Positions 45,680 to 47,262 of a DNA stretch of 64,000 nucleotides are shown here, in pieces (positions within the stretch are counted from its first letter, which is position 1; every line of letters begins with the position of its first letter). The stretch comes from Geobacter sp. FeAm09. GTDB taxonomy: Bacteria > Desulfobacterota > Desulfuromonadia > Geobacterales > Pseudopelobacteraceae. The notes below the pieces were generated by a model. That model saw nothing but the letters and a program-made list of their open reading frames with translations, had not been told where the DNA came from and did not search any database. The stretch spans positions 3,280,001 to 3,344,000 of the forward strand of contig NZ_CP042466.1 of NCBI RefSeq assembly GCF_008330225.1. The letters are read 5' to 3'. A program made the position numbers and the translations under genes.

Positions 45680-46984
45680 CTAGGACGCCAGGTATTCGGC
45701 GATCTTCTCCGCAAGCGTGCTGTAGATGCGGCGGCACTCGTTCTCGTCCTTCTCCAGCAGCGTGACGCGGAACCCCTGCAACGGGGTGGAGAACGAGGAG
45801 AGCGGCACGACGCAGATGCCGGTTGCCGCCAGGATATGGTAGACGAAGCGCTTGTCCGGGGAGACGCCGGGCTGGTTGACCAGGCCGTTCACCAGGTCGC
45901 GCACCTCGCTGTTGGCGATGGGGACCGACTGGCGGTTGGTCAAAAGCCCCTCCTTGAACGCCACGGCCATGTAGAATGCGCCGTTGGTGCGGTTGACCTG
46001 GAGCTGTGGCACCTCTTTGAGGAAGTCGTAGGTAATGTTGCTCATCTTCTCGTAGCTGGCGATGCGCTCCGCCAGGTAGCCGGCGTAGCCGGGGTGCTGC
46101 ATGATGGTGGGAATCACGGTCTGGGGCAGGGTCGTGGAACAGACCTCGTTCATCTTGCTGGTGAGGATCAGGTTGACGTATTTCTGGAACTGCTTGTCCT
46201 CGTGGCCGTTGTAGACCTCGATCCAGCCGCAGCGCGAACCGGGCCAGGGGAATTCCTTGGAAATCCCCTTCAACGAGATGGCCGGAACATCGCCGATCAC
46301 GTCGCAGATCGGCACGGCGGTTTCGCCGTTGTACACGATGTTCGTGTAGACCTCGTCGGCGATGATGAACAGGTTGTGCTCCCGGGCCACCGCCACGATC
46401 TCGCGCAGCGTCTTCTCGGTATAGACCATGCCGGTGGGATTGTCGGGATTGATGATCATGATGGCGCAGATGTTGGGATTGTACTTGATATGGTTGCGCA
46501 GGTCATCCAGATCGGGATACCAGTTGTCCTCGGGCTTGAGCCGGAAGAGGGCGGGAGCGGCATGGGCATGGCCGATCTCCCCCAGGGTATGGGTCGTGTA
46601 GGAGGGGGAGGGCATCAGCACGCGGGCCTCGGGGCGCAGGCAGCCATAGATCTTGGCAATGGCGTCCCCCAGGCCGTTGAAGAAGATGATGTCCTCCGGG
46701 GTGATCTGGGCTCCGCCGCGCCGGTTGGTCATGTCGCAGATGAACTCGCGGGTTTCCAGCACGCCGCGGGTGTGGCAATAGCCCCAGGTGGCATCGTCCG
46801 CCACCGCCTTGGCCACGATCTCCTTCATCCAGGCCGGGATCGCCTCCCCTTTGACGATCGGGTCGCCGATATTCTCCCAGTTGATCTTCACGCCGTGGTT
46901 TTGCAGCTTTTCAGCCACGTTGACAATATTGCGGATCTCGTAGGTCAACTCCCCCGTCCCGGGGCTTACCAGATCGATACGCAT
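45680..46984 (-). CDS. PLP-dependent class I aminotransferase (possible alanine aminotransferase)
   Basis: A 434-residue fold-type I aminotransferase. PLP contacts are Asn182 (INPDNPTG), Asp210 and Tyr213 (IIADEVYTN), Lys243 in SKEFPWPGSRCGW and Arg251. The family includes alanine, aspartate and aromatic aminotransferases; the sequence alone does not fix the substrate. The Ala-rich leader peptide directly upstream suggests control by alanyl-tRNA charging, and hence a role in alanine synthesis. This is inference. It is a single-gene unit. Confidence 0.85.
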   Translation of the reverse strand: MRIDLVSPGTGELTYEIRNIVNVAEKLQNHGVKINWENIGDPIVKGEAIPAWMKEIVAKAVADDATWGYCHTRGVLETREFICDMTNRRGGAQITPEDIIFFNGLGDAIAKIYGCLRPEARVLMPSPSYTTHTLGEIGHAHAAPALFRLKPEDNWYPDLDDLRNHIKYNPNICAIMIINPDNPTGMVYTEKTLREIVAVAREHNLFIIADEVYTNIVYNGETAVPICDVIGDVPAISLKGISKEFPWPGSRCGWIEVYNGHEDKQFQKYVNLILTSKMNEVCSTTLPQTVIPTIMQHPGYAGYLAERIASYEKMSNITYDFLKEVPQLQVNRTNGAFYMAVAFKEGLLTNRQSVPIANSEVRDLVNGLVNQPGVSPDKRFVYHILAATGICVVPLSSFSTPLQGFRVTLLEKDENECRRIYSTLAEKIAEYLAS

Positions 46985-47077
46985 AGCTGTCTCCTCTCAA
47001 TGTATAGGTACATGCATCTCTATCATCGCAGTCATTCCCGCCTGGCCGCGAACGGGGCGGCCAGGCGCGACACAAAC

Positions 47078-47108
47078 AAAAAAGCCGCGGGCTTCTCTGC
47101 CCACGGCT
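47078..47108 (-). terminator. Attenuator terminator in the aminotransferase leader
   Basis: On the minus strand AGCCGTGGGC-AGAGAA-GCCCGCGGCT is a 10-bp stem (one G-T pair) followed at once by TTTTTT. It lies after a leader ORF and about 95 bases before the aminotransferase ATG, so it would end transcription before the gene unless prevented. Confidence 0.85.
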
Positions 47109-47148
47109 GGTAAAGGTATTCCGATCATATTCATGATCACCGGGCAGA
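47096..47148 (-). promoter_or_regulatory. Candidate antiterminator of the aminotransferase leader
   Basis: TCTGCCC (47148-47142), formed by the last sense codons of the leader peptide, is complementary to GGGCAGA (47102-47096), which is the 5' arm end and loop of the terminator. The two pairings cannot coexist. A further 6-bp hairpin GATCAT-GAAT-ATGATC (47138-47123) lies between them. A ribosome at the leader stop codon (47139-47137) would cover the antiterminator arm. Confidence 0.7.
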
Positions 47149-47223
47149 ACTCACTCCAGCGGCGTCGCTCGCCGCGGCGCTGATAGCTCGTGCTGCTGCA
47201 ATGGCGGTCATCATGGTAAACAT
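47137..47223 (-). CDS. Alanine-rich leader peptide
   Basis: A 28-codon ORF reading MFTMMTAIAAARAIS then AAASDAAGVSSAR and a stop. Eleven of 28 residues are Ala, clustered in the middle. Start candidates are the ATGs at 47223, 47214 and 47211; none has a good Shine-Dalgarno and the promoter predicts a nearly leaderless RNA. The stop codon abuts the antiterminator arm, as in classical amino-acid attenuators. It is too short for conservation to be judged here. Confidence 0.65.
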   Translation of the reverse strand: MFTMMTAIAAARAISAAASDAAGVSSAR

Positions 47224-47232
47224 AGGTTTTTT

Positions 47233-47262
47233 TCTATACCACACCCAACCTGTGAGCGTCAA
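47233..47262 (-). promoter_or_regulatory. Promoter of the leader-aminotransferase unit
   Basis: TTGACG (47262-47257) and TATAGA (47238-47233) are separated by 18 bases. Transcription would begin near 47226, only a few bases before the first leader ATG. The -35 overlaps the stop codon of the upstream gene. Confidence 0.7.

What the first reader, a model, noticed from the sequence alone, without database searches (positions are those of the whole stretch)
47078..47262. Alanine-rich leader peptide with antiterminator/terminator stems ahead of an aminotransferase
Seen: promoter TTGACG-18-TATAGA, a 28-codon ORF with 11 Ala codons, a stop codon abutting TCTGCCC, complementary GGGCAGA inside a strong intrinsic terminator, then the aminotransferase. 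Known: amino-acid biosynthetic operons in other bacteria use this layout for ribosome-mediated attenuation. Inferred: low Ala-tRNA stalls the ribosome at the Ala codons, the antiterminator forms and the gene is read through. I recall no described alanine attenuator of this kind. It would also point to alanine as the product of the aminotransferase.
Basis: partly seen in the sequence, partly recalled or inferred. Interest (0 to 1): 0.85.

Follow-up and report, generated by a model that had tools for sequence, protein, structure and literature searches.

The report
Alanine-sensing gene switch in Desulfuromonadia
Just before a gene for a probable alanine-making enzyme, these bacteria carry a tiny alanine-rich reading frame and an RNA stop signal that together look like a switch turning the enzyme on when alanine runs short, a kind of control I did not find described for alanine.

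Summary
On the minus strand at 47262-47075 lie a promoter, a 28-codon ORF with 11 Ala codons, and a strong terminator (z -5.05), ahead of an AlaA-like aminotransferase (NF005334). Of 141 upstream regions of the orthologue in the same order, 101 have all three parts; one more is cut by its contig end and one leader lies before an inserted gene. The three-part signature occurs nowhere else in 1.2 Mb of control sequence. In 20 chosen genomes of 13 other families of the class, all 20 have an Ala-rich frame before the same gene. None of the 141 regions keeps the stem without the ORF. A second lineage shares only a run of 4-5 Ala codons. Best reading: ribosome-mediated attenuation sensing Ala-tRNA. 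The ORF starts 7-9 nt after the -10 box in 42 of 49 loci, so the leader mRNA is probably leaderless here. Weak point: in the main lineage, antiterminator pairing is hardly stronger than recoded peptides give (p = 0.06). Translation, regulation and alanine formation are unmeasured. Ten searches of open-access papers found no alanine attenuator.

The parts
47257..47262 (-). -35 box TTGACG
   Evidence: TTGAC at the corresponding place in all 101 leaders accepted
47233..47238 (-). -10 box TATAGA
   Evidence: ATG follows 9 nt later here, 6-9 nt later in 44 of 49 loci with the promoter in the contig
47137..47223 (-). leader peptide ORF, 28 codons, 11 Ala; probably starts within a few nt of the transcript's 5' end
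47185..47199 (-). region 1: GCA GCA GCA CGA GCT (Ala Ala Ala Arg Ala), includes the invariant CGA
47159..47175 (-). internal hairpin GCGGCG/CGCCGC within the Ala codons
   Evidence: conserved stem in alignment A1; mostly invariant, so weak covariation evidence
47142..47148 (-). region 2: TCTGCCC, antiterminator strand at the end of the ORF
47083..47108 (-). intrinsic terminator hairpin AGCCGTGGGCAGAGAAGCCCGCGGCT; its 5' arm and loop (GGGCAGA, 47102-47096) are region 3
   Evidence: changes on both sides in 7 of 10 pairs of the aligned stem
47075..47082 (-). U tract of the terminator
45680..46984 (-). aminotransferase, NCBIfam NF005334 (PRK06855), AlaA/AlaAT-like; controlled gene

Best explanation
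It is a ribosome-mediated transcription attenuator that senses alanine. RNA polymerase starts a few bases before, or at, the leader ATG (inferred from promoter spacing). A ribosome translates the Ala-rich leader (inferred from codon-level conservation). With enough Ala-tRNA the ribosome runs to the stop codon and covers region 2, so the terminator (3:4) forms and transcription ends before the aminotransferase (inferred). When Ala-tRNA is short the ribosome stalls on an Ala codon in region 1 or the middle of the ORF. Region 2 is then free and pairs with the terminator's 5' arm (2:3), the terminator cannot form, and the gene is read (inferred; simple folding models agree). The gene product is most likely an alanine aminotransferase (pyruvate + glutamate to alanine), so the loop is a negative feedback on alanine. 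Shown by sequence: the parts, their order, their conservation and their joint loss.
For: Leader at 101 of 141 orthologue upstream regions in the order by one rule, plus G120_C8 with the promoter cut by the contig end, and G001, where a leader sits before an inserted gene. 99 of 101 peptides have at least AAA; GCN is 35% of codons in frame against 6% and 4% in the other two frames. Several Ala columns vary synonymously. A divergent lineage (Geomonas and kin, 21 of 101) keeps only a run of 4-5 Ala. Other families: 20 of 20 read have an Ala-rich frame before the aminotransferase (20 of the 66 genomes outside the order with a model match, chosen for spread of families and mostly good scores). ORF and terminator are lost together. 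Terminator covariation. Antiterminator: a run of at least 5 pairs, G-U counted, in 33 of 37 main-type loci and of 4 in the other four; compensatory changes incl. a three-strand change in L026 and one in L011. In the Geomonas type the stalled-state fold energy and the 2:3 duplex are in the best 10% of shuffles in 13 of 13. Folding: terminator arm more often paired upstream with the ribosome at Ala codons than at the stop in 35 of 37 and 13 of 13. Enzyme nearest to P. furiosus 1xi9 and E. coli AlaA 4cvq among solved structures; no alanine dehydrogenase by TIGR00518 in the genome; no second close relative in the genome.
Against: Synonymous recoding of the leader gives nearly as strong 2:3 pairing in the main type (mean -12.9 against -12.4 kcal/mol, p = 0.06; 4 of 37 loci in the best 10%; own against swapped partners p = 0.20). 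In the stalled-state folds only 5 of 37 (arm pairing) and 2 of 37 (energy) main-type loci are in the best 10%. In the Geomonas type the arm-pairing measure does not exceed shuffles either (1 of 13), and those 13 loci are close kin. Site A of the antiterminator does not exceed column shuffles; site B does so modestly (20-46 of 500 as high). In the main type modelled antitermination is already high before the Ala codons (0.75), so it does not single them out there. 36 of the 137 regions with at least 400 nt upstream are without a leader at the expected place (35 if the displaced one of G001 is set aside). Leaders G126 and G017 lack AAA. No expression data.
Confidence: 0.87

Rival explanations
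1. Nascent-peptide arrest: the ribosome stalls because of the peptide sequence (ARAIxAAA) or a small ligand, not because Ala-tRNA is scarce.
For: Within the main type the peptide core R-A-x-x-A-A-A is nearly invariant, and CGA is conserved to the nucleotide.
Against: The Geomonas-type peptides share only the Ala run; the C-terminal parts differ between families, and variants L048 and G065 end in other residues after the first Ala run.
Confidence: 0.05
2. The Ala codons are a by-product of a GC-rich RNA structure (a structured RNA or riboswitch-like element); translation is not needed.
For: Strong nucleotide conservation of CGAGCT and GCGGC/GCCGC; recoding tests do not show clear extra antiterminator pairing beyond the peptide.
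Against: GCN is confined to one frame, which has a start and a stop; synonymous changes at Ala columns; gaps just before the Ala run in the Geomonas type are of three bases; no Rfam match to the element nor to the leaders of five relatives.
Confidence: 0.04
3. A general sensor of slow translation, like the recoded trpL reporters, rather than an alanine-specific one.
For: In the main type the modelled antitermination is high for stalls at any early codon.
Against: Ala is the residue enriched in both leader types and in the other families, and the gene behind the leader is an AlaA-like aminotransferase (in G001 after an inserted gene).
Confidence: 0.04

Closest known systems
Leader-peptide attenuators of amino-acid operons (trp, his, leu, thr, ilv, phe of enterobacteria; recalled)
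   Same: Short ORF rich in codons of the product amino acid, then mutually exclusive antiterminator and terminator, then the biosynthetic gene.
   Different: The amino acid is alanine; the controlled gene is a single aminotransferase; the ORF has up to 14 Ala codons; in this order the ORF starts almost at the predicted 5' end of the transcript.
Leaderless trpL attenuator of Sinorhizobium (recalled)
   Same: Leader ORF begins at or near the first base of the transcript.
   Different: Senses Trp; different sequence and gene.
Alanine T-box upstream of alaS in Firmicutes (recalled)
   Same: Transcription control by charging of tRNA-Ala.
   Different: T-box RNA binds the tRNA directly without translation; no T-box match here.
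trpL reporter with Trp codons replaced by two Ala codons (PMC5039519, passages read)
   Same: An attenuator with Ala codons.
   Different: Man-made, built to remove Trp dependence and report translation inhibitors, not alanine.

Membership tests
Ribosome-mediated (leader-peptide) transcription attenuator | short ORF enriched in the codons of one amino acid, between promoter and gene | tested here: met
   window, and 101 of 141 regions; Ala enriched in one frame only
Ribosome-mediated (leader-peptide) transcription attenuator | intrinsic terminator between ORF and gene | tested here: met
   required by the rule; not found where the ORF is absent
Ribosome-mediated (leader-peptide) transcription attenuator | antiterminator strand at the ORF end, complementary to the terminator 5' arm | tested here: met
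   all 37 main-type loci have a run of at least 4 pairs, 33 at least 5, G-U counted; seen in the 4 Geomonas-type loci folded
Ribosome-mediated (leader-peptide) transcription attenuator | selection on that pairing beyond what the peptide or composition imposes | tested here: inconclusive
   main type p = 0.06, 5 and 2 of 37; other families 8 of 19 in the best 10%; Geomonas type 13 of 13 by energy and duplex but 1 of 13 by arm pairing
Ribosome-mediated (leader-peptide) transcription attenuator | ORF is translated and read-through rises when the amino acid is short | not testable with these tools
   needs experiment
T-box or other catalogued RNA regulator | match to an Rfam covariance model | tested here: not met
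   no match at gathering score; only a chance-level sRNA match, E 0.37, on the opposite strand
NF005334 / PRK06855 aminotransferase | score above the curated cut-off | tested here: met
   742 bits against 443
NF006230 alanine aminotransferase (PRK08363) | score above the curated cut-off | tested here: not met
   199.5 against 534 bits
Alanine aminotransferase (activity) | forms alanine from pyruvate | not testable with these tools
   nearest solved relatives 1xi9 and E. coli AlaA 4cvq are only a hint

The most novel reading that the evidence does not exclude
An ancient, class-wide alanine attenuator, the first for this amino acid, that in one order works on leaderless mRNA and carries a built-in timing element: the CGA codon of the CGA-GC(N) pair, fixed in 80 of 80 anchored Geobacterales main-type leaders and with CGAGC in all 20 loci read from other families, would slow or place the ribosome just before Ala codons and so set the switch point.
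Probability: 0.25. Interest if true: 0.75.

Novelty: new variant of a known kind. Interest (0 to 1): 0.64.

Why it matters
Alanine is not among the amino acids that I recall as being under leader-peptide attenuation. If true, this adds it, gives a likely function to a family of aminotransferases named only by number, and shows how many bacteria of the metal-reducing class Desulfuromonadia may control alanine. The repeated clean losses, the second leader type and the apparent change between leaderless starts and starts with a ribosome site make it a good natural series for asking how attenuators evolve.

Tried and rejected
Second copy of the leader elsewhere in the genome: the model R1 gave only weak extra matches (25 bits and less); the one in the window (51946-51823, -) is the Ala/Lys-rich end of a protein plus a terminator. 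Of 19 regions read around weaker matches in other genomes, 15 were chance matches of that general kind (ends of longer frames plus a terminator) and four true leaders (L094, L104, L111, L112). The leaderless loci do not carry the leader further up: all 31 then classed as leaderless (one of them, L017, with only 41 nt upstream) were searched whole with R1; their matches were weak (21 bits and less) and none lies upstream of the gene.

Paralogy as the reason for missing leaders: the tree of 80 rows (L078 left out as too short; L017 counted as leaderless) puts leader-bearing and leaderless rows side by side, needing at least 10 changes by well-supported branches. Arginine as the sensed amino acid: rejected because L058 and L059 have no Arg, nor has the L077 leader read from its own promoter. 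RNA-only explanation and arrest peptide: see rivals. Antiterminator tests by synonymous recoding, partner swap and shuffling: negative or borderline in the main type, mixed in the Geomonas type. In one search the Geomonas control shuffled only the stretch after the stop, which misses region 2 where the ORF runs on past it; one search replaced it. In one search the recoding used codon use of Geobacterales genes, not of those families. In one search the promoter distance of 6-10 nt and a loose -10 match (2 of 6) were part of the rule, so the spacing is taken from one search, which had no distance rule; there the choice of promoter or ATG was wrong for some loci, and four (L019, L022, L056, L075) were set by hand.

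Literature: ten searches found no alanine attenuator; open-licence PMC only, so most subscription papers are not covered. Read as passages: PMC5039519, PMC2965389 (its main text has neither 'alanine' nor 'Geobacter'), PMC9200625 (unrelated secretion motif). The others were seen only in search listings.

Full report
What is there. On the minus strand upstream of an aminotransferase gene (46984-45680) the window has TTGACG (47262-47257), an 18-nt spacer, TATAGA (47238-47233), an ORF from 47223 to 47137 that reads MFTMMTAIAAARAISAAASDAAGVSSAR, and a hairpin at 47108-47083 followed by TTTTTGTTTG. The terminator folds at -21.3 kcal/mol, z -5.05, with none of 200 shuffles as good. TCTGCCC near the stop codon is complementary to GGGCAGA in the hairpin's 5' arm and loop.

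The gene. The protein scores 742 bits against NCBIfam NF005334 (cut-off 443), described only as a pyridoxal phosphate-dependent aminotransferase, and far below the cut-off of the alanine aminotransferase model NF006230 (199.5 against 534). Its closest solved relatives by sequence are a P. furiosus transaminase (1xi9; organism recalled) and E. coli AlaA (4cvq, glutamate-pyruvate aminotransferase AlaA). The genome has no alanine dehydrogenase by TIGR00518, a search that rings in 8 of 14 control genomes, and no other close relative of this protein (best other match 27% over part of the length). The next gene, a tatA-like one, is convergent, so the aminotransferase is probably transcribed alone. 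Alanine as its product is likely but not shown.

Conservation in the order. Searches cover 141 genomes of the same order; 136 have the aminotransferase (E <= 1e-100), at 142 places. I examined 141 upstream regions (140 fetched, and the window; the fragment G087:C1 was left out). By one rule (ATG ORF of 14-60 codons with at least 4 Ala, a TTGAC-type -35 with a loose -10 ending 6-10 nt before the ATG, terminator behind it) 101 have the leader and 40 do not. Of the 40, G120_C8 has ORF and terminator with the promoter cut by the contig end; G110, G022 and G132_C59 have only 41, 121 and 218 nt upstream; G001 has a leader upstream of an inserted gene. None of the 141 keeps the attenuator hairpin without the ORF: the terminator-like matches of G111 and G004 are other, weak stems. 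In G003 a promoter of the same kind stands directly before the gene with no leader between. In the tree of 80 orthologues the leader is present in nearly all the deeper rows of the order (not L064, nor the outlier L080) and missing in scattered rows, mostly of one clade, with at least 10 changes forced by well-supported branches.

Chance. On both strands of 80 orthologue loci and the window (1,217,380 bases), 7631 short ATG ORFs were tested. 382 are Ala-rich, 107 have the promoter, 373 a terminator; all three coincide at 59 starts in 48 sequences, each at this leader and none elsewhere.

Codons. In the 101 leaders GCN makes up 35% of codons in frame, 6% and 4% in the other frames; 95 of 101 have the highest value in frame. 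99 of 101 contain AAA; the other two (G126, G017) have AA. Ala columns at +4, +6 and +10 from the CGA anchor vary among synonymous codons, while +1 (GCT) and +5 (GCG) hardly do. Over the 50 leaders of the first set, Ala codons are GCA 145, GCC 115, GCG 100, GCT 67, against a GCC-dominated use (53%) in the genes of the main type. In the Geomonas-type leaders (21 of 101; e.g. MYTNSVTSRGSVHAAAAARPF) nothing of the peptide but a run of 4-5 Ala is shared with the main type, and the gap just before the run is of three bases.

Start of the leader mRNA. With the first ATG after the best promoter taken, 44 of 49 loci have 6-9 nt between -10 box and ATG, 42 have 7-9 (in L046 the promoter is beyond the contig end). 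Transcription usually starts about seven bases after the -10 box (recalled), so the ORF should begin at or within about three bases of the 5' end. This is an inference; no 5' ends were mapped. In many of the other families there is a purine-rich, ribosome-site-like stretch before the ATG instead (seen by eye, not tested).

RNA. The terminator covaries: 7 of its 10 aligned pairs have sequences with both sides changed. For the antiterminator two registers exist at the end of the ORF. Every one of 37 main-type loci has a run of at least 4 pairs in one of them, 33 at least 5, G-U counted. Sliding the partner drops paired cells from 80-83% to 28-59%. Compensatory changes occur: L026 changes all three strands together (GTGGACAG, CTGTCTGC, GTCCAC), and L011 changes GGGCAG to GGGCGG with CTGCCC to CCGCCC, at a position outside the terminator stem. 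But register A does not exceed column shuffles (416-497 of 500 as high) and register B only modestly (20-46 of 500). Recoded peptides pair almost as well (p = 0.06; 4 of 37 in the best 10%), own partners are no better than swapped ones (p = 0.20), and the stalled-state folds stand out in only 5 and 2 of 37. The window itself and its two nearest relatives are among the better ones (3-6% of recodings as strong). In the Geomonas type, with everything between the stalled ribosome and the terminator shuffled, 13 of 13 loci are in the best 10% by fold energy and by 2:3 duplex, but 1 of 13 by probability of arm pairing; these loci are close kin and not independent (which replaces the poorer control). 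In other families, 8 of 19 tested loci are in the best 10% of recodings, 6 in the best 5%.

Ribosome model. With the transcript cut just after the terminator's loop and everything up to 12 nt past the A-site start taken as covered, the terminator arm is paired upstream with mean probability 0.75 for stalls at Ala codons (main type: those at least 8 codons from the end) and 0.56 at the stop in the main type (35 of 37 higher), and 0.73 against 0.50 in the Geomonas type (13 of 13). In the Geomonas type it is only 0.45 shortly before the Ala run, so the model picks out the Ala codons there; in the main type stalls before the run also give 0.75. Without a ribosome it is 0.67 and 0.61. These are equilibrium folds, not a kinetic model.

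Beyond the order. In 277 genomes of the class (the order included), the gene is in 252 and model R1 matches at E <= 1e-4 in 153, 66 of them outside the order (counted); some matches at this level are chance, as one search shows. I read 20 of those 66, chosen from 13 families and mostly among the better scores. All 20 have the aminotransferase downstream (17 by motif, 3 read), all have an Ala-rich frame, 17 with AAA (up to 14 Ala of 35), and all 20 contain CGAGC. For some the start codon is uncertain (GTG or TTG taken for G164, G232, G234, G244), and for G254 and G185 the ORF picked is probably too short. In L276 and L277, for example, region 2 has another sequence than in the order (TGTCCATTGCCTT opposite AAGGCCATGGGCA) but is again complementary. 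The 46 other matches, and families without a match, were not read.

Unexplained. CGA is the Arg codon in 80 of 80 anchored main-type leaders (the anchor itself asked for CGAGC or CGAGT; the 21 not anchored are all of the Geomonas type), though only 3.5% of Arg codons in the genes, and CGAGC is in all 20 loci outside the order. I did not test systematically for a pairing partner. A slow codon that places the ribosome is one possibility.

Verdict. An alanine-sensing leader-peptide attenuator is by far the best reading. The kind is known; the amino acid, the gene and the class-wide family are, as far as the searched open-access literature goes, new.

Noticed in passing
leader at 47190-47185 (-) and related leaders: The CGA codon before a GCN codon is fixed in the main-type leaders of the order, and CGAGC in all 20 loci read from other families, although CGA is a rare Arg codon in the genes; reason unknown.
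   Followed up: partly
L094 (G001:C101): A gene of about 316 codons lies between the Ala leader and the aminotransferase, so the leader seems to head a two-gene unit.
   Followed up: partly
L003, L218 and other leaderless loci: ORF and terminator have been lost cleanly many times, mostly within one clade; in several of these loci the SH3-like protein gene upstream now ends close to the aminotransferase.
   Followed up: partly
window 52115-51882 (-): Small Ala/Lys-rich protein ending in APAAK with a terminator just behind it; it matches the leader model weakly by chance, and similar protein ends were hit in several relatives.
   Followed up: no
window 47067-47039 (-): A second strong hairpin (CGCCTGGCCGC...GCGGCCAGGCG) without a U tract, between the terminator and the gene; by eye not present in the relative L001.
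   Followed up: no
window 61893-61796 (-): Selenocysteine tRNA gene.
   Followed up: no
L048, L199 (G065), L225 (G126), L247 (G013): Leaders with frameshifts or early stops that keep the first Ala codons but lose most later ones; L048 and L225 visibly keep the RNA around region 2.
   Followed up: partly
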